From NCBI GenBank assembly GCA_007135795.1, contig SLIE01000531.1, forward strand, positions 1 to 11,975: a DNA stretch of 11,975 nt, read 5' to 3'. Origin of the DNA: Desulfobacterales bacterium. Lineage in GTDB: Bacteria > Desulfobacterota > Desulfobacteria > Desulfobacterales > Desulfosalsimonadaceae. A program made the translations under genes and the position numbers. The notes below the pieces were generated by a model. The model was given only the letters and a program-made list of their open reading frames with translations, searched no databases and was not told the DNA's origin. Of the stretch, positions 431 through 11,217 are shown one piece after another (positions within the stretch are counted from its first letter, which is position 1; every line of letters begins with the position of its first letter).

Positions 431-529
431 ATTGCACCATACGGCTATGCCCCTTCAGCAATGCGAATTTCAACCTGGAGTACATTGGCAGATTCAAGGT
501 GCAAATTTCTGGAGGTTCGGAAATATTCG
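431..529 (+). repeat. Dispersed repeat, copy A
   Basis: This stretch aligns without gaps to 9406-9504 in the same orientation. Over the first 78 positions I count 62 identical bases (about 79%). The best block is AGATTCAAGGTGCAAATTT near the right side. The copy begins ATTGCACC and ends near GGTGCAAATTT, so its ends are loosely inverted (TGCACC / GGTGCA). No open frame is shared between the copies, so it looks like a non-coding repeat and not a protein domain. The rest of the 207-606 gap shows nothing else I can support. Confidence 0.7.
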
Positions 530-3008: not shown

Positions 3009-3518
3009 TTGGAATGTTGGAAACATTATATAATATTCGCCCGTAAAAATCTTTCTGATTTGCTTATTGAAATCGGCGTATTGCATCAGCTCTTTCGAGG
3101 GGTGGTTCTTACCTGAGGAGACACGTCCGATCATTTTCTTGTGTTCCGTTTTTTACCTTCAGCTCCTTGTATCTTGCAGCCTTTGTCGACTGTATTCAAA
3201 ATACCGGGTGCTATATAAGGTTTCACTGAATATTCGCTGGCACCCATCCAAACCCTTGAATTGATCGCCGCGGTCGTCTTTTACCGGCGGAAAGATCAAT
3301 GTTGCGGACTCAATGATCGGCAGGGCAGAAACAGTGGTTTATAGTGAATTGAGAGCGTATGGCAAAAAAAATTATGCGTCGGAATCTGCAGTTGTTTCTT
3401 ATTGCAAATTGCAAAGAAAAGAATTATGTTCTATGTTTAACCATAAACTATCTTTTTTTCCTGGTGCGGACAATTACAAAAGGCGCGATCATGGAATTTT
3501 CAAAAAAGTTCCGGATCT
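3009..3518. other. Gene-less stretch with one structured inverted repeat
   Basis: No convincing gene is present in either strand. The only structure is at 3260-3300: ATTGATC and GATCAAT as outer arms, with CCG-C-GGT and ACC-GG-CGG as imperfect inner arms around an eight-base loop. It lacks a T-run, so it is not an obvious terminator. Confidence 0.4.
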
Positions 3519-3575
3519 GATGCACTCGTAAAAAACTCGCGATCGGACGGTTTTTGTAAAAAAGGTCAAGATCAG
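3519..3575 (+). repeat. CTCGTAAAA-family dispersed repeat, copy 1
   Basis: The stretch starts GATGCACTCGTAAAAA, continues CTCGCGATCGGA, and then reaches TTTTTGTAAAAAA. Copy 2 (from 4551) has the same opening, CGCGATCAGA and CTTTGTAAAAAAA at the same relative positions with a 2-3 base indel. Copy 3 (from 8452) shares the opening only. After about 57 bases copies 1 and 2 diverge. It lies upstream of the TetR gene, in a region with no other gene. Confidence 0.65.
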
Positions 3576-3753
3576 TGCGGCCGGGCAAGGTCGTGCATTG
3601 AAGCGGGTGTCGGATGACATTATAGTACCGGAGAAGGTTGGTAATACTGCTTAAGGTGGTAGTCAAAATGAAAGGCCATTATGCCAACTATGGTGTTGAA
3701 AACAAATGCCGATTTTTCAAAGCATCCGTTAAGCACAGCACAAGGACCGTGAT

Positions 3754-4434
3754 ATGGTATACCGACGAACACCCCGCATGCAGAAGCGGGTCGACCAGCG
3801 CAGGCGCGAAATACTGGAAGCTACCGAGGAGCTTATCGCGGAAAAAGGTTTTCTCGCCACCACCATGAACGATGTCGCGGCAAGGGCAAAAACATCCATT
3901 GGTAACGTGTATTTTCATTTCAGCAACAAAGACGAGATCGTGCTTGCGGTCATCGATCGTCTGTGCGAGGAAATATGGCAGGTCGACGAACTTGCCGGTA
4001 TCGATATCGATACCGCAGGATGCCATCCCTATACACTCGAAGCGCTTGACGATTACCTTACCGTGATGGCCCTGTTTTCGAACAAGCGTTTTGCCGAGGC
4101 AATAGCTGGCGGGTCGGGGCATCCCGGTTTCCGGGAACATGTCATTGGTTTTTTTGAAAAGCGAGCGACCTTGCGATATGAGAAATATGCCGATTTCTAC
4201 CAGGGTATCGATCGGGACCTGGCGTTTGCGTGCCACTTCGGATCTGTTGTCAATGTTTTGCTGAAAGTCATCACGGGCCGCTTGGATCGAAGCCCGGAAT
4301 CGGCCGGCCTGTTCCTTGCCCGCTGGAAGCTCCAGGCGCGCGGCATCGATCCGGAGATCACGACCGCCATCATGGATGAACTCTGTTCCATGGCGCGCAA
4401 AATCGAATCGCTTTCCTCCCCCCCCGACCAATGA
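3754..4434 (+). CDS. TetR/AcrR-family transcriptional regulator of the efflux operon
   Basis: A 226-residue one-component repressor. The DNA-binding domain fills residues 15-65. A first helix (R-R-E-I-L-E-A-T-E-E-L-I-A-E-K-G-F) is followed by the helix-turn-helix T-M-N-D-V-A-A-R-A-K-T-S-I-G-N-V-Y-F-H-F (37-56) and S-N-K-D-E-I (57-62), all diagnostic of the family. The C-terminal ligand-binding/dimer domain is divergent, so the inducer cannot be predicted. The ATG at 3754 follows AAGGA at 7 bp. A hairpin terminator follows the stop codon. The efflux genes begin 414 bp downstream on the same strand behind a promoter carrying two palindromes, so this protein most likely represses them in trans, with release on ligand binding. 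That regulatory link is inference. Confidence 0.9.
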   Translation: MVYRRTPRMQKRVDQRRREILEATEELIAEKGFLATTMNDVAARAKTSIGNVYFHFSNKDEIVLAVIDRLCEEIWQVDELAGIDIDTAGCHPYTLEALDDYLTVMALFSNKRFAEAIAGGSGHPGFREHVIGFFEKRATLRYEKYADFYQGIDRDLAFACHFGSVVNVLLKVITGRLDRSPESAGLFLARWKLQARGIDPEITTAIMDELCSMARKIESLSSPPDQ

Positions 4435-4446
4435 CACACCCGTAAA

Positions 4447-4480
4447 AACACCCTTCACTTCCTCAGCGGTGAAGGGTGTT
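4447..4480 (+). terminator. Hairpin terminator after the TetR gene
   Basis: A perfect 12-bp stem, AACACCCTTCAC (4447-4458) with GTGAAGGGTGTT (4469-4480), and a 10-base loop, begins 12 bases after the TGA. The downstream T-tract is weak (CTTTG), but the stem also has an A-rich 5' flank, so it might act in both directions. It separates the regulator's transcript from the efflux operon. Confidence 0.7.
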
Positions 4481-4550
4481 CTTTGCGAATTCGTAAATTC
4501 CAATTGTGTCGGCTCCCGACAGTTGCCCTTCTTTCATTAAAGACAATCCA

Positions 4551-4703
4551 GATGCACTCGTAAAAGTCGCGATCAGATGACTTTGTAAAAAAATCCAAGC
4601 TCAAGGTTTGTCCAATTTCGAAGGACGCGGATTACTGAGCACATGTGAGTTTCTGAGAAACTGCGCATAGCTCAGACATTGGACTTTTGCGGAATGATGA
4701 ATC
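4551..4703. repeat. MITE-like inverted-repeat element (CTCGTAAAA family, copy 2)
   Basis: The left end GATGCACTCGTAAAAGTC is mirrored at the right end by GACTTTTGCGGAATGATGAATC (8 of 9 matching in the inner GTAAAAGTC part). Inside it, GTCCAAT (4610-4616) pairs with ATTGGAC (4678-4684). Next CTGAGC (4635-4640) pairs with GCTCAG (4670-4675), then ATGTG with CGCAT, and AGTTTC (4648-4653) with GAAACT (4657-4662) around a TGA loop. The whole unit of about 153 bp could fold into one long hairpin. It has no coding capacity. It sits between the TetR gene and the efflux promoter. The end points are approximate. Confidence 0.65.
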
Positions 4704-4718
4704 TCTTTTTTTAAGAAC

Positions 4719-4731
4719 AGAATCAGATTCT
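4719..4731. promoter_or_regulatory. Putative operator 1, AGAATCAGATTCT
   Basis: A perfect 6+1+6 palindrome just upstream of the -35 box of the efflux promoter. It differs from operator 2 only at the central base. The two centres (4725 and 4757) are 32 bp apart, about three helical turns. Assignment to the TetR-family protein encoded upstream is inference from position. Confidence 0.7.
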
Positions 4732-4739
4732 TTTTTTTG

Positions 4740-4768
4740 TTGACAAAAATAGAATCGGATTCTATGTA
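4740..4768 (+). promoter_or_regulatory. Promoter of the tolC-hlyD-permease operon
   Basis: A consensus -35 TTGACA at 4740-4745 is followed by a 17-bp spacer and TATGTA at 4763-4768 as a weaker -10. Transcription would start near 4775, giving a leader of about 70 bases before the GTG at 4848. The spacer is almost filled by a palindrome (operator 2), so a bound repressor would exclude RNA polymerase. Confidence 0.75.
4749..4765. promoter_or_regulatory. Putative operator 2, ATAGAATCGGATTCTAT
   Basis: A perfect 17-bp palindrome (8+1+8) inside the -35/-10 spacer, sharing the core AGAATC-n-GATTCT with operator 1. Size and placement fit a TetR-family homodimer site. Confidence 0.75.
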
Positions 4769-4847
4769 TTGTTCCAACGAATGAAAAAAGACTGTTGTCG
4801 CTGATGCAGGCTTTCAGGCAGGAAAAGAAGTCAAAAGAGGGTGGAAC

Positions 4848-6263
4848 GTGAAAAGAGGATTCTGGGTCAGGACGGTTTTGATGTCGGTGCTGATTGTATT
4901 CCATGCGGCTGGTGTCGCAGACGCGCAAACTTCAAAAGCGCCATGTCTGGATGAAGTGCTCCAGCAGGCGATTCTGCATGACAGGGAAGTGGAGATAGCC
5001 GGCCATAAGGCCGAAGCTGCGGCCATCGAAAGGCGAAAGGCCGTGGAATCCTACCTTCCGCGGATCGGGCTAGAGTCAAGCTTTCGGGTCATCGATGAAG
5101 CGATCGGGACAGACCCCTTTATCCTTCCTCCACCGGCTGACATGGTCCGGATGCCGTCCATAACGCTTCAGGAAAAGCGGACGTTTCGGGCCGGAATCGA
5201 AGTCAGTCAGCTTCTGTTCAGCGGTTTCGAGGTTCCCCGGAAAATCCGGGCAGCCGATCATGGTCACATGGCCGCGCAATTCTTGACCGAAGCAAAAAAA
5301 CAGCATCTCGTACTGTCGGTTGCCGGCCTCTACGACAGTCTTTCCCTTACGGAGCAAGCCCTGGCGCTGATGGACAGGGAGCATGAACGCCTCGCAGCGG
5401 AAAAAGAAAAGGCAATGAAAGCTTTTTCAGAGGGGCTGATTCCCTATTACGACCTTGCGCGCCTGGACACGGCCATCAACGAGATATATAGCAGGCGGAT
5501 AGAAATCCGGGGAAAGCGGCATCTCGCGGCATTGCGCCTGGAACAAGTAAGTGGCATCGACCGGGATCGCTTTTTCGGCGACGTTCCTGAACTGGCGGTG
5601 ATCGAAATGCCTCCCGGGATCGATCCGGCGCGCCCGCCGGCGTCCGGATCGGGAGGCGGTGAGCGTTCCAGCGGGATGCACGCCGCCCCTGTCAATGGTG
5701 ACCCGCCGGATGTCAAGGCGCTTTACGAAGCCCGCCAGGCGGCCGGATACCTTTACCAGGCAGAGCGGAGTGCCTATCTTCCAAAGGTTGTCGCCTTCTA
5801 CCGTCATGAGCTCTACGAGGACGACTTGTCTGTTCTGGAACCGGCGCGTGCAGGGGGCGTGCTCCTTCGGTGGGATCTGTTCACGGGGCTTTCCCGCTCC
5901 CGGGAAGTTCAACAGGCGAATATTGAGCAGCAGATTGCCCGCAGCCGCCTGGCGGACGCACGCCTGGATGCGGCAATGGGCCGGGAGCAGGCCTCGGTCA
6001 ACGAAGCCGTAGCGCGGCAGCAAATCGAGGCGGCGGATGCAAATCTGAAGTCCGTTGCGCTTTCGCTTGAGCTGGCCTCGGAGCGTTATGATGCCGGCCT
6101 TGCACCGGTCTCGGAATTCCTCGAAGCACGGGCTGATTACCAGCGAGCCCGCCTATCCAGGATGGAAGCCGTATACCAGCAACGTCGCGCTGCAATGGAT
6201 AGTCTCTATACCCACGGCATGCTATCAATCGAAACCGTATTAAATATAGGAAAAAAACTATGA
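4848..6263 (+). CDS. TolC-family outer-membrane efflux protein
   Basis: The outer-membrane duct of a tripartite pump, expected to form a trimeric beta-barrel plus alpha-helical periplasmic tunnel. The 471-residue product starts at GTG 4848 with AGAGG 7 bp upstream. This start gives a clear signal peptide: basic M-K-R, a hydrophobic core to about residue 22, and probable cleavage after A-D-A (residue 26). The mature part is largely amphipathic helix rich in A, E, R and L, with the typical internal duplication. Each half holds a long helical pair (for example K-A-E-A-A-A-I-E-R-R-K-A-V-E near 47-61, and S-L-E-L-A-S-E-R-Y-D-A-G-L-A-P near 405-420). The R-Y-D-A-G-L pattern with a following L-E-A-R-A-D-Y is a family hallmark. 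It is the first gene of the operon and overlaps the next by ATGA. Confidence 0.92.
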   Translation: MKRGFWVRTVLMSVLIVFHAAGVADAQTSKAPCLDEVLQQAILHDREVEIAGHKAEAAAIERRKAVESYLPRIGLESSFRVIDEAIGTDPFILPPPADMVRMPSITLQEKRTFRAGIEVSQLLFSGFEVPRKIRAADHGHMAAQFLTEAKKQHLVLSVAGLYDSLSLTEQALALMDREHERLAAEKEKAMKAFSEGLIPYYDLARLDTAINEIYSRRIEIRGKRHLAALRLEQVSGIDRDRFFGDVPELAVIEMPPGIDPARPPASGSGGGERSSGMHAAPVNGDPPDVKALYEARQAAGYLYQAERSAYLPKVVAFYRHELYEDDLSVLEPARAGGVLLRWDLFTGLSRSREVQQANIEQQIARSRLADARLDAAMGREQASVNEAVARQQIEAADANLKSVALSLELASERYDAGLAPVSEFLEARADYQRARLSRMEAVYQQRRAAMDSLYTHGMLSIETVLNIGKKL

Positions 6264-7273
6264 ACACGAAACGGCTTAAAAGGTGGGGCCTGGTGTTGTT
6301 TTTCATTTGCGCCTTTGTAATCATGGGGTTTGCGGCCCACGCACATCGGGAGGACAGTGAGCATCCGCCGATGTCCGGAAAGGTTCGTTTCGAGACGATC
6401 CATGTTTCATCCAAGGTGCCAGGCCGGATTATAACCATTGCCGTGCGGGAAGGTGAGCGGGTGCGAAAAGGGGATGTGCTGGCCGTAATCGATGTGCCGG
6501 AAATCGGAGCCCGGGTGGAGGCTGCGGAAGGAGCCTTGAAAGCCGCTTCAGCAAAATACCGGATGGCCCTCGAGGGGGCGAGCGAATACGATCGCAAAAA
6601 GGTCCGATCGCAATATGAAGTGGCCCGATCGCAATATGATTATGCAAAAAACAGTTACCACCGTATCGCATCCATGAATGACGGGCGCTTGATCGCGCAG
6701 CAGGAGTACGAGCGTGTGAAATCGAACTACCTGGCTACCAGGGCGAATTTCGGGGCGGCCGAAGCCCACCTTGCGGATATCGAATCCGGTGTCAGGGCCG
6801 AAAAAATCGAGATGGCAGAAGGAAACATGCTCCGGGCGAAAGGCGCGCTCAGGGAAGCAAGAAGCACCTACAAAGAACGGGTCGTACGAGCGCCCACGGA
6901 TATGCGGATCGAGTCCGTTACCATGAAGCCAGGCGAGCTGGCCGCCCAGGGGTTTCCCCTCTTCACGGGTCATGCCGACGAAGCCCTGCATTTTCGTTTC
7001 ACTGCCCCCGAATCCGTTGTCCATTCGTTTTCAAGGGGTAAAAAATACGAGGTTCGCATGGCCTTCACGGGCTTGCGGGTTGATGTGGTGCTCGATGAGA
7101 TACTTGCGCTTCCCGGGTATGCCGCTGTCACCGCCATGTACCCGCGCAAGAAAACCGGAGAGACGGTGTACGAACTGAAATTCCGTCCTGCGGACGCTGT
7201 GGAGCCGGATGCCGTGCATCATAATATGCGGGTATTCATGGAAAACGCGCCGCAGGCAGGCGGCGCCAGATAA
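6260..7273 (+). CDS. HlyD-family periplasmic adaptor (membrane fusion protein)
   Basis: The adaptor that links the inner-membrane permease to the TolC duct. In the 337-residue protein, residues 8-27 form a single N-terminal membrane anchor. The first lipoyl half-motif is V-P-G-R-I-I-T-I-A-V-R-E-G-E-R-V-R-K-G-D (53-72). A long charged helical hairpin (about 82-205) is rich in A, E, K and R, as expected of the coiled coil. The second lipoyl half starts at V-R-A-P-T-D-M-R-I-E-S-V, followed by M-K-P-G-E-L-A-A-Q-G. A beta-barrel domain follows. It overlaps the tolC stop by ATGA, so translation is probably coupled. The permease gene starts 16 bp after its stop. Confidence 0.92.
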   Translation: MNTKRLKRWGLVLFFICAFVIMGFAAHAHREDSEHPPMSGKVRFETIHVSSKVPGRIITIAVREGERVRKGDVLAVIDVPEIGARVEAAEGALKAASAKYRMALEGASEYDRKKVRSQYEVARSQYDYAKNSYHRIASMNDGRLIAQQEYERVKSNYLATRANFGAAEAHLADIESGVRAEKIEMAEGNMLRAKGALREARSTYKERVVRAPTDMRIESVTMKPGELAAQGFPLFTGHADEALHFRFTAPESVVHSFSRGKKYEVRMAFTGLRVDVVLDEILALPGYAAVTAMYPRKKTGETVYELKFRPADAVEPDAVHHNMRVFMENAPQAGGAR

Positions 7274-7289
7274 CCGGGAGCTTATAACA

Positions 7290-8453
7290 ATGGGCGGGCT
7301 TAGGGTTTTTTTTCATATCGTGGAAAGGGAGTTCGGGAAGTTTTTTTCCAATTCCGTTGCTGTGGCTATATTTATCGGGGCGCCGCTTCTCTACGGCGTT
7401 GTATTTGGCTCTCTTTATGCTGACGGGCAGGTATACGATATACCGATTGCAGTGGTGGACGGCAGCCGCGGTGCGATAGGCGAACGGATCGTGGACGGGC
7501 TCAGGGAGAATGAGAACGTTTCTGTGGCCGGGGTATTCGCCTGCGAGCAGGGGTTGTGGGACAGCTTTGTCCGGGGCGATGTGCATGCCATTATTACCCT
7601 GGGACCCGATTTTGACAAGGACGTGTTCCTGGGGCGTATGCCAGAAGTCCATGTTCGTCTTAATATGGCCAACATGCTCGTTGCCAATTATGTATCAGGC
7701 GCTGTCCAACATGTGCTGGCAACCCAGGAAGTGAAAATCCGCACCGGCTCAATGATCCGTCTGGGGGCGGTGCCCGCGCCGGTCGCCCAGGATCATCACG
7801 GCGCATTCAGCGTCCATTATTCACGCTATTTCAATCCGTCCGGCAATTACCTGTTCTTTCTTCTGCCGGGTTTTCTCGGAATGGTGCTGCAGCAGGTGTT
7901 TTTACTTGTCGCAGCCCTTTCCTTCGCTCGGGAGGCGGAAGAAAAAACGTTTAATGAACTGATTGTCAAGACCCGTTCGGCCGCAATGATCGTTTTGGGA
8001 AAAGCGGTTCCGTACTGGATCATGGGAATGCTGATGTGGCTGTTTTCCCTCCATGGGGTTCTTTACTGGTACGGTGTTCCAATAGACGGATCCCCGGTTG
8101 CCCTCTATGGCCTTTCCCTGCTGTTTGTCCTGTCTATGACGAGCATCGGCATCCTGGTCAGCGCGGCTGTTCCCTCGCAGTTGAAGGCAACGGAGATACT
8201 CATGGTGATGGCAGCACCTGCTTTTCTGCTAAGCGGCTATACCTGGCCCCTTTCCCAGATGCCGCAGGCTGTCGCCGCTGTGGCGAAACTGATCCCGACG
8301 ACCCATTTTCTGGAGGCCCTTCGCAAAATCATCCTGGCGGATGCCGCCATGCCGCACCTGTTGCGGGAATCCATTTTTCTTGCGCTTCTTGCCGTCATTC
8401 CATTTGTTTTAACAATCATTATCGTTAAGCGCAAAATTCGGCAACAAAATTGA
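7290..8453 (+). CDS. ABC-2 type permease (efflux transporter membrane subunit)
   Basis: The inner-membrane permease of the pump, of the YhhJ/YbhR-like ABC-2 group, 387 residues. One membrane helix lies at 23-43. A large periplasmic domain spans about 45-185, and five more helices lie near 188-211, 236-260, 271-293, 302-322 and 361-379. The A-R-E-A-E-E-K-T-F-N-E-L segment (213-224) corresponds to the cytoplasmic E-R-E-x-G-T coupling region, and S-G-Y-T-W-P-L-S-Q-M-P (315-325) is typical of the group. The frame is open back to 7209, but ATG 7290 has GGGAG at 9 bp and a normal N-terminus. It is the last gene of the operon. No ATP-binding subunit and no second permease gene is present, so it either uses an ATPase encoded elsewhere or works as a homodimer with a borrowed one. 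Confidence 0.9.
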   Translation: MGGLRVFFHIVEREFGKFFSNSVAVAIFIGAPLLYGVVFGSLYADGQVYDIPIAVVDGSRGAIGERIVDGLRENENVSVAGVFACEQGLWDSFVRGDVHAIITLGPDFDKDVFLGRMPEVHVRLNMANMLVANYVSGAVQHVLATQEVKIRTGSMIRLGAVPAPVAQDHHGAFSVHYSRYFNPSGNYLFFLLPGFLGMVLQQVFLLVAALSFAREAEEKTFNELIVKTRSAAMIVLGKAVPYWIMGMLMWLFSLHGVLYWYGVPIDGSPVALYGLSLLFVLSMTSIGILVSAAVPSQLKATEILMVMAAPAFLLSGYTWPLSQMPQAVAAVAKLIPTTHFLEALRKIILADAAMPHLLRESIFLALLAVIPFVLTIIIVKRKIRQQN

Positions 8454-9405: not shown

Positions 9406-9504
9406 ATTGCACCTTACGTCTATGCACCTCCAGTAATGAGATTTTAGCCCTGGACAGGATTGCCAGATTCAAGATGCAAATTTACGGATGTATAAGAATA
9501 TCCC
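9406..9504 (+). repeat. Dispersed repeat, copy B
   Basis: Gap-free match to 431-529 (62 of the first 78 bases identical). It starts ATTGCACC and contains CCAGATTCAAGATGCAAATTT. It lies in the gene graveyard between the IS66 piece and the dehydrogenase relic. Confidence 0.7.
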
Positions 9505-9827: not shown

Positions 9828-9931
9828 TAGAATGAAGGCTATCAAGCTGTTCCCTAAATGCCTCAACTCCATCCGGCTCCCGCTCGATATCATGTGGCGT
9901 GTAAAGACGTCGAGGGTATCCGCATATACGG

Positions 9932-10090
9932 AATGACGTCTACCTGACCGGCTTTTCCCTGATGTTCGCATGGGCCGCAATTTCCTTTGTACTGATGCTT
10001 TTCACCGGGAAACCCATTGCCGATAAAAACATTGAAGTTCCCCCTGAGGTAAATATGTTTGAAATAAATGAGATTACGTATATAATTTAA
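9932..10090 (+). pseudogene. C-terminal relic of a multi-pass membrane protein
   Basis: Fifty-two codons begin N-D-V-Y-L-T-G-F-S and continue with a single hydrophobic helix, L-M-F-A-W-A-A-I-S-F-V-L-M-L-F. A polar tail follows, T-G-K-P-I-A-D-K-N-I-E-V-P-P-E-V, ending in TAA at 10088-10090. It resembles the last transmembrane helix and cytoplasmic tail of a transporter (MFS-like in flavour), but I cannot name the family. A stop lies upstream in frame and there is no start codon, so it is truncated at its 5' side. Its last codons overlap the promoter of the following operon. Confidence 0.45.
10059..10086 (+). promoter_or_regulatory. Promoter of the YeeE/YedE pair
   Basis: TTGAAA (10059-10064), a 16-bp spacer and a perfect TATAAT (10081-10086). 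Transcription would start near 10093, leaving a leader of about 85 bases. No clear operator or riboswitch is seen in the leader. Confidence 0.7.
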
Positions 10091-10177
10091 AGGTGGCAAC
10101 CGAAAGGAAGAGATGCGGCGGTCGGAAACATCCACGATACCATTAACAGGCAAAATCCATTTCAAAAGGAGGCTTGC

Positions 10178-10693
10178 ATGTCAGACAAAAACCAATGGAA
10201 CCCCTACCTCGCCGGCGGGCTGACTGGGATCGTCATGATCCTGTCGATATGGATCGCCGGCCAGTTTTTCGGGGCTTCCACCTCTTTTGTAAGGACGGCC
10301 GGCATCATCGAAAACCTGTTTTCCCCGGAACGGGTCCAGCAATTGGAATACTACGTCCGGGTGGCCCCCCGGCTGGAATGGCAGTGGTTCTTCGTGGTAG
10401 GCATTCTGCTTGGGTCCTTGGCCGCATCGAAACTCGGCGGCAATTTCAGGTGGCAGGCGGTGCCAGACATGTGGCAGCACCGCTTCGGCAACACGCCGGT
10501 CAAACGAGGAATTACCGCATTTGCCGGCGGTGCGGTGCTCATGTTCGGCGCCCGCATGGCGGATGGATGACCGAGCGGCCATGGGTTGAGCGGTACGCTT
10601 CAACTGAGCATCAGCGGCATAGTCTCCGTGGTCTTCTTTTTTCTCGCCGGGATCCTTGTGGCACGCATCATCTACGGGGGAGATGAAAAATGA
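10178..10693 (+). CDS. YeeE/YedE-family membrane protein, predicted selenoprotein (Sec131 encoded by TGA 10568-10570)
   Basis: First half of a split sulfur-compound transporter of the YeeE/YedE (TsuA/PmpA-like) type, 171 residues if TGA is read as selenocysteine. The start is ATG 10178 with AAAAGGAGG 5 bp upstream. Likely membrane helices are near 10-28, 68-88, 109-129 and 142-166. The family motif G-A-R-x-A-D-G-C-P-S-G-H-G-L-S-G is intact except that the Cys codon is TGA. The frame continues P-S-G-H-G-L-S-G-T and then a fourth hydrophobic helix. It ends in TGA 10691-10693, overlapping the next gene's ATG by ATGA. A SECIS-like hairpin follows the internal TGA. In TsuA-type proteins the conserved cysteines of each half line the thiosulfate path, so Sec would sit at the functional site. 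Alternatives are a nonsense mutation or a sequencing error. The selenocysteine machinery is not in this window. Confidence 0.8.
10584..10605 (+). promoter_or_regulatory. Putative bacterial SECIS element
   Basis: A hairpin in the coding RNA just after the in-frame TGA. GTTGA (10585-10589) pairs with TCAAC (10600-10604), one bulged U (10599) follows on the 3' side, then GC (10590-10591) pairs with GC (10597-10598). The loop is GGUAC (10592-10596), and an outer G-U pair closes 10584/10605. The loop starts 21 bases after the UGA, within the 16-37 base range used for bacterial SECIS searches. A GGU-type loop and a bulged U are the features SelB reads in E. coli fdhF, but there the bulge is on the 5' side. 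Confidence 0.65.
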
Positions 10694-11217
10694 AACTTAT
10701 CCTGATGGGCCTGGTTACAGGCATACTTTTCGGATTTCTGCTCCAGAAGGCGACAGTCCTCCGATACGACCGGCAATTAGGCGCGCTGCGGCTCCGGGAT
10801 ATGACCATCGTAAAATTCATGCTGTCGGCGGTCTGTGTCGCCATGGTGGGGGTATACCTGCTGCACGACCTGGGCATGGCAGCGCTTTCCGTCAAGGAAA
10901 CCGTTCTCGGCGCCAACATTGTCGGCGCAATCCTGTTCGGCCTGGGGTGGGGGCTTTTGGGCTACTGTCCAGGCACTTCCCTGGGCGCTCTCGGGGAAGG
11001 CCGATATGATGCACTCTGGGGAATAATCGGCATGATTTTCGGTGCCGCCGTTTTTGCAAGGGCATACCCGTTTTTGACCGAAACCGTGTATACATGGGGC
11101 AACTACGGCAAGCTCACACTCCCGTCGGCACTGGGTATCAACCACTGGCCCGTGATCATTGCTTTCATCGTCATCTCCCTCCTGCTGTTTTGGTGGTTCG
11201 AAAAAATAAAGTTATAA
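10690..11217 (+). CDS. YeeE/YedE-family membrane protein, second half of the transporter pair
   Basis: A 175-residue membrane protein that would complete the transporter with the upstream selenoprotein. Helices lie at about 2-20, 38-58, 73-92, 106-124 and 152-171. The motif G-W-G-L-L-G-Y-C-P-G-T-S-L-G-A (86-100) carries the conserved cysteine (Cys93) of the second YeeE/YedE half, followed by E-G-R-Y-D-A-L-W-G. In this gene the cysteine is an ordinary TGT, so only one half uses the unusual codon. The start ATG is within the ATGA overlap with the preceding stop, so translation is probably coupled and depends on reading through the upstream TGA. The substrate is probably thiosulfate or another reduced sulfur compound by family. 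Selenium compounds cannot be excluded. Confidence 0.9.
   Translation: MKLILMGLVTGILFGFLLQKATVLRYDRQLGALRLRDMTIVKFMLSAVCVAMVGVYLLHDLGMAALSVKETVLGANIVGAILFGLGWGLLGYCPGTSLGALGEGRYDALWGIIGMIFGAAVFARAYPFLTETVYTWGNYGKLTLPSALGINHWPVIIAFIVISLLLFWWFEKIKL

What the first reader, a model, noticed from the sequence alone, without database searches (positions are those of the whole stretch)
10178..10693. YeeE/YedE transporter subunit with a selenocysteine at the conserved cysteine
The TGA at 10568-10570 falls exactly on the Cys of the ADG-C-PSGHG motif. The downstream frame keeps the family motif, adds a fourth membrane helix and ends in an ATGA overlap with the partner gene. An ordinary nonsense mutation would hit this one codon only by chance. 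A Sec residue at the substrate-contact position of a sulfur transporter would change its redox and thiolate chemistry. Whether Sec-containing YeeE proteins have been described before I do not know.
Basis: partly seen in the sequence, partly recalled or inferred. Interest (0 to 1): 0.92.

Follow-up and report, generated by a model that had tools for sequence, protein, structure and literature searches.

The report
Selenocysteine-containing half of sulfur importer
A bacterial membrane protein thought to import sulfur compounds appears to carry the rare amino acid selenocysteine at its key sulfur-handling position; the sequence evidence is strong, but selenium-containing transporters of this family had already been listed in published tables.

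Summary
Window 10178-10693 encodes a 171-residue PF04143 (YeeE/YedE) protein with one in-frame TGA, at 10568-10570, on the family's conserved Cys (ADG-U-PSGHG). It overlaps its partner gene (10690-11217) by ATGA. Among 49 relatives fetched from genome contigs, this codon is TGA in 26, TGC in 19 and TGT in 4; no TGA gene has another stop in the aligned part. A SECIS-like hairpin, its loop 22 nt after the TGA, is complete in 26 of 30 TGA genes and 0 of 23 Cys genes. The draft genome has SelA, a SelD that itself carries an in-frame TGA, and a SelB fragment. tRNA-Sec was not found in this 82%-complete assembly, but is present in all five same-genus genomes searched. Selenocysteine is much the best reading.

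The pair is of the two-subunit type (YedE1E2/PmpAB). The Sec aligns with Cys293 of the thiosulfate transporter TsuA, the 'first' cysteine of its relay. Its likely job is import of sulfane sulfur or thiosulfate with selenium as first acceptor; this is inferred. Sec-containing YeeE/YedE proteins are already in print as a selenoprotein family (motif GUxSG), so this is a new member of a known kind.

The parts
10167..10172 (+). likely ribosome binding site AGGAGG, 5 nt before the ATG
   Evidence: read directly
10178..10693 (+). Sec-containing YeeE/YedE half-subunit (C-terminal-half / PmpA type), 171 residues with UGA read as Sec
   Evidence: PF04143 86.1 bits, profile 174-309; 6leo residues 237-328
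10568..10570 (+). Sec codon TGA (residue 131), aligned with Cys293 of TsuA
10584..10605 (+). SECIS-like hairpin; apical loop GTA at 10593-10595, 22 nt after the TGA
10690..10693 (+). ATGA overlap of start and stop codons (translational coupling likely)
10690..11217 (+). partner half-subunit (N-terminal-half / PmpB type), 175 aa, Cys93 aligned with TsuA Cys91
   Evidence: PF04143 59.5 bits and DUF6691 30.8 bits; 6leo residues 2-179; partner adjacent in 45 of 49 relatives

Best explanation
The gene encodes a selenoprotein. The UGA at codon 131 is decoded as selenocysteine by the organism's SelA/SelB/SelC/SelD system, directed by the hairpin that follows it after 13 nt. The product is the C-terminal-half subunit of a two-gene YeeE/YedE (YedE1E2/PmpAB-type) importer, made with its partner from overlapping genes. 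By homology the Sec sits where TsuA has Cys293, the first cysteine of the relay, at the substrate-entry end. The likely mechanism is that the selenolate first takes sulfane sulfur (or contacts thiosulfate) on the outside and passes it to Cys93 of the partner (TsuA Cys91) and on to a cytoplasmic acceptor. Shown by sequence: codon, conservation, hairpin, part of the machinery genes, subunit layout. Inferred: Sec insertion itself, substrate, direction and relay chemistry.
For: Codon is TGA or Cys in 49 of 49 relatives and in 30 of 30 loci. Complete hairpin in 26 of 30 TGA genes and 0 of 23 Cys genes; hairpin stretch more stable in TGA than Cys genes (mean -9.1 against -4.4 kcal/mol; 22 of 30 against 3 of 23 at p<0.05 against synonymous reshuffles). 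Downstream dN/dS 0.12-0.33 in the nine of 26 TGA relatives compared. Own genome: SelA 611 bits; SelD with in-frame TGA at residue 16; SelB C-terminal fragment, 67% identical to a congener's. Five of five same-genus genomes have tRNA-Sec and SelB over cut-off (TCA anticodon checked in one). TsuA C293/C91 alignments. The organism's other, Cys-type pair lies beside a metallo-beta-lactamase/rhodanese protein. Literature: YedE1E2 imports zero-valent sulfur and its two conserved Cys are essential (PMC10812762, passages).
Against: tRNA-Sec was not found in the window's own assembly by family model (150 of 300 candidates scored) or by a congener's sequence; SelB is only a 52-residue fragment there. 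Of six other genomes with the TGA gene, only two have both SelB and tRNA-Sec over cut-off, and one (G023, 71% complete) has neither; G038 and G090, both 97% complete, have SelB but no tRNA-Sec found. The RNA search scored only 117 candidates a genome. Sec machinery does not separate the forms: 12 of 15 Cys-type genomes have SelB and 14 of 15 tRNA-Sec over cut-off. For the window alone the hairpin is modest (p 0.042), and folds of 40-61 nt give z of -0.8 to 0. Four of 30 TGA genes lack the complete hairpin, whose registers I defined after seeing the sequences; 8 of 30 miss p<0.05. No peptide, 75Se or transport data.
Confidence: 0.93

Rival explanations
1. Nonsense mutation: the gene is a pseudogene, or only a 130-residue form is made.
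For: Gene callers stop there: 8 of the 120 listed database homologues (one of them the window's own) are 130 aa and end in ADG.
Against: TGA at the same codon in 26 of 49 relatives, with intact sequence after it, under purifying selection in the nine compared, and a hairpin tied to the TGA.
Confidence: 0.02
2. UGA is read as another amino acid (suppressor or alternative code) rather than Sec.
For: tRNA-Sec was not found in this assembly.
Against: Relatives without TGA have Cys at this codon, never Trp or another residue (23 of 23); selA and a TGA-bearing selD are present; five of five same-genus genomes have tRNA-Sec.
Confidence: 0.03
3. The Sec protein is real but the transporter mainly takes up selenium compounds rather than sulfur compounds.
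For: YedE is a proposed selenium-related transporter (PMC9312934 passages); the partner scores 39.6 bits to TIGR04112 seleno_YedE.
Against: That score is far below the cut-off of 200, and the TsuA model scores about the same (40.3 bits). The organism's Cys-type pair sits beside a metallo-beta-lactamase/rhodanese protein. Neighbours of the Sec genes give no help: apart from the partner no gene cluster recurs in more than 3 of 44 loci, leaving out two that by position lie antisense to the pair, and the neighbours were not annotated.
Confidence: 0.15

Closest known systems
YeeE/YedE thiosulfate transporter family selenoprotein (PF04143, motif GUxSG; table entries in PMC9312934 and PMC13188914)
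   Same: Same Pfam family; the window's G-U-P-S-G fits GUxSG.
   Different: I did not see the sequence of the cited protein (WP_012471001.1), so whether it too is the half-length, two-subunit type is untested. The passages I read describe no SECIS, no Sec/Cys switching and no mapping to Cys293 for this family.
YedE1E2 (Cupriavidus pinatubonensis) / PmpAB (Serratia)
   Same: Two separate half-length YeeE/YedE proteins, one conserved Cys position in each, genes mostly neighbours; YedE1E2 imports zero-valent sulfur (PMC10812762 and PMC11582611, passages).
   Different: There the position is Cys; here it is Sec. The halves here are longer (171 and 175 residues). Which of YedE1 and YedE2 matches the Sec subunit was not tested.
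TsuA/YeeE of Spirochaeta thermophila (6leo, 8j4c)
   Same: Both halves align to it, with Sec131 on C293 and partner Cys93 on C91.
   Different: TsuA is one chain with a third cysteine, C22. The window's partner has Leu there, and none of the 45 partners compared has Cys. Scores are far below the TsuA cut-offs.

Membership tests
YeeE/YedE family (PF04143) | score over the curated cut-off | tested here: met
   86.1 and 59.5 bits, cut-off 27
Two-subunit YedE1E2/PmpAB type | two short adjacent genes matching the C- and N-terminal halves | tested here: met
   profile 174-309 and 16-150; partner adjacent in 45 of 49 relatives; of the other 4, two end at the contig end and two are Mycobacterium
Two-subunit YedE1E2/PmpAB type | one conserved Cys position per half (TsuA C293 and C91) | tested here: met
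   Sec131 and Cys93; partner Cys kept in 45 of 45
Bacterial selenoprotein | in-frame UGA aligned with Cys of homologues, conserved sequence after it | tested here: met
Bacterial selenoprotein | SECIS-like hairpin just after the UGA | tested here: met
   complete in the window and in 26 of 30 TGA genes, 0 of 23 Cys genes; no dedicated SECIS program was run
Bacterial selenoprotein | SelA, SelB, SelC, SelD in the genome | tested here: inconclusive
   SelA and part of SelD found, SelB a fragment, SelC not found in an 82%-complete assembly; SelB and tRNA-Sec in 5 of 5 same-genus genomes
Bacterial selenoprotein | Sec present in the protein | not testable with these tools
   needs 75Se labelling or mass spectrometry
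Published Sec-YeeE family (GUxSG) | motif GUxSG in PF04143 | tested here: met
   G-U-P-S-G; motif from the table in PMC13188914
TsuA thiosulfate transporter (NF052577, NF041049) | score over the model cut-off | tested here: not met
   Sec subunit 45.3 of 400 and 34.8 of 645 bits; partner 40.3 and 28
YedE selenium transporter (TIGR04112, NF033796) | score over the model cut-off | tested here: not met
   partner 39.6 of 200 (TIGR04112) and 28.6 of 350 (NF033796); Sec subunit 22.5 of 350

The most novel reading that the evidence does not exclude
Selenium sits directly in the translocation path of a membrane importer and takes part covalently: the Sec selenolate attacks extracellular polysulfide or other sulfane sulfur, carries it as a selenenyl-sulfide, and hands it to the partner subunit's Cys, making this a selenium-based sulfur relay across a membrane. 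Repeated switching between Sec and Cys in the family gives natural matched pairs to test it.
Probability: 0.35. Interest if true: 0.65.

Novelty: new member of a known kind. Interest (0 to 1): 0.36.

Why it matters
Most known prokaryotic selenoprotein families are thought to act in redox reactions (abstract of PMC9312934); a Sec at the entry cysteine of a transporter asks whether selenium speeds sulfur uptake. The family mixes Sec and Cys forms, and one Sec form is in a named strain, Desulfatitalea alkaliphila M08but (L063), so the question is testable. It also shows an annotation fault: eight database entries, the window's own among them, end at residue 130, just before the Sec.

Tried and rejected
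Tried without gain: Rfam scan of the window (no match at gathering scores). Folding 40-61 nt after the TGA in the window alone gave z of -0.8 to 0; only the 24-nt hairpin stretch compared across genes gave a signal. Structure prediction with 22 sequences was too weak to use (pLDDT 67.4, under 50 at 131-137), so no fold search was made. The RNA-family hits for tRNA-Sec in the own genome were tRNA-Leu, -Arg and -Ser. SelB-family hits on C370 and C351 of the own genome are other GTPases (EF-Tu- and TypA-like, recognised by eye). Gene neighbourhood, compared in 44 loci, gave no clue beyond the partner gene. Searches for prior print.

Considered and rejected: pseudogene, alternative code, truncated product (see rivals). 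The Cys loci of the first set were not added to the hairpin counts: the 23 Cys genes are those. The hairpin registers were defined after looking at the sequences, and TGA genes are related to each other, so the Mann-Whitney values are not probabilities for independent samples. In one search both sides were taken as free of gaps; the upstream side may be misaligned in L058, L060 and L063.

Full report
WHAT IS THERE. The window is contig C216 of a 2.91 Mb draft genome in 543 contigs, 82% complete. At 10178-10693 an ATG-started frame, 5 nt after AGGAGG, reads 171 codons with a single in-frame TGA at 10568-10570 and ends in TGA at 10691-10693. Residues 4-159 match PF04143 with 86.1 bits (cut-off 27), profile positions 174-309; the next gene, 10690-11217, overlaps by ATGA and matches positions 16-150 with 59.5 bits. 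So the two genes are the C-terminal and N-terminal halves of a YeeE/YedE protein.

THE CODON IN RELATIVES. In a search of 98 related genomes, 38 had a match. Of 44 matches listed, 30 were fetched; the aligned codon is TGA in 7 (window included) and TGC or TGT in 23. The 14 not fetched are listed without a stop inside. One Cys gene (G051) was listed with a TAG, which lies outside the part aligned. A scan of genome contigs gave 49 loci: TGA 26, TGC 19, TGT 4. No TGA gene has another stop in the aligned part. One TGA relative is a named strain, Desulfatitalea alkaliphila M08but (L063). In a tree of 49 rows (27 Sec including the window, 22 Cys) the Sec/Cys label needs at least 6 changes, 4 of them forced by well-supported branches: the forms have switched more than once, though the tool warns of long branches and the direction of change is open.

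SELECTION AFTER THE TGA. In nine relatives chosen from the 26, dN/dS over 37 codons downstream is 0.12 to 0.33.

THE HAIRPIN. The window forms GGTTGAGCG-GTA-CGC-T-TCAACT at 10584-10605, apical loop 22 nt after the TGA and opening with G, with one unpaired T. In the window and six close relatives this stretch is nearly invariant. The complete stem, in any of three registers, is present in 26 of 30 TGA genes and 0 of 23 Cys genes. Paired changes occur among TGA genes, such as G-C to T-A at offsets 15/34 and T-A to C-G at 16/33. The 24-nt stretch averages -9.1 kcal/mol in TGA and -4.4 in Cys genes; 22 of 30 against 3 of 23 beat synonymous reshuffles at p<0.05, the window itself at 0.042. Limits: registers were set after inspection, sequences are related, and longer folds of the window alone show nothing special. 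The general shape agrees with the published bacterial SECIS description as I recall it; I did not run a SECIS program.

SELENOCYSTEINE MACHINERY. Own genome: SelA 611 bits; a SelD fragment (211 residues matched, cut by the contig end) with TGA at residue 16, ASG-U-AAK, the usual Sec/Cys site as I recall it; a SelB C-terminal fragment of 52 residues at a contig edge, 67% identical to a congener's. tRNA-Sec was not found by the Rfam model (150 of 300 candidates scored) nor with a congener's 98-base gene. All five same-genus genomes searched have tRNA-Sec at about 76.5 bits and SelB over cut-off, and ARAGORN calls the one tested tRNA-SeC with anticodon TCA. Of the six other genomes with the TGA gene, SelB is over cut-off in G003, G004, G038, G090 and tRNA-Sec in G003, G004, G008; G023 has neither. 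Of 15 genomes in that set with a Cys-type gene and no TGA gene, SelB is over cut-off in 12 and tRNA-Sec in 14 (two of these barely), so the machinery does not separate the two forms.

WHAT IT WORKS LIKE. The TGA residue aligns with Cys293 of S. thermophila TsuA and the partner's Cys93 with Cys91 (numbers counted by hand along the printed alignments). The partner has Leu at TsuA Cys22, and none of 45 partners has Cys there. [quoted passage not shown] PMC11582611 (passages), which counts Cys293 as the third by sequence order, says C91 and C293 are indispensable and that PmpA and PmpB match the two halves with one of these cysteines each. PMC10812762 (passages) reports that the two-subunit YedE1E2 speeds zero-valent sulfur import and that its two conserved Cys are essential. 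In this organism a second, Cys-type pair lies next to a metallo-beta-lactamase/rhodanese protein, which fits sulfane sulfur use. I therefore take sulfane sulfur or thiosulfate import as most likely, with the selenolate as first acceptor. The substrate and the chemistry are inference.

WHAT IS KNOWN. [quoted passage not shown] PMC9312934 (passages) lists the family too. The main texts of the papers cited there do not name it. Other searches showed no fuller account in the held library, which lacks most subscription papers; of the listed hits I opened only some (those cited here and PMC12170894, which in the passages seen names YedE/YeeE only as sulfur-transport proteins). The finding is thus a well-supported new member of a listed family. 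What I did not see in the passages read are the SECIS, the two-subunit layout of the Sec form, the Sec/Cys switching and the Cys293 mapping. In a protein search 645 proteins matched and 120 were listed: 112 have Cys at the position and 8, the window's own included, end at residue 130.

Noticed in passing
window 9914-10030 (+): Remnant matching residues 390-428 (46% identity, E 1.5e-6) of a 429-aa protein, MFS-transporter-like by eye, whose open gene lies just upstream of the same pair in the relative L051; no other significant part of it was found in the window.
   Followed up: partly
window 431-516 and 9406-9491: An 86-nt direct repeat, 78% identical, about 9 kb apart. Separately, stretches at 3517-3574 and 4551-4610 both match one stretch of L051 near 3750-3811.
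   Followed up: no
window 3754-8453 (+): Gene row TetR-type regulator, outer membrane efflux protein, HlyD-type protein, ABC-2 permease.
   Followed up: no
L014 3-638 (-), contig C399: SelD of the same genome is itself a selenoprotein by sequence (TGA at residue 16), cut by the contig end.
   Followed up: partly
L001 59-2781 (contig C183): A second, Cys-type pair of YeeE/YedE halves beside a metallo-beta-lactamase/rhodanese protein in the same genome.
   Followed up: partly
genomes G038 and G090 (L026, L025): Both have the TGA gene and full-length SelB but no tRNA-Sec over the Rfam cut-off (117 candidates scored in each), and a congener's tRNA-Sec sequence found none either.
   Followed up: partly
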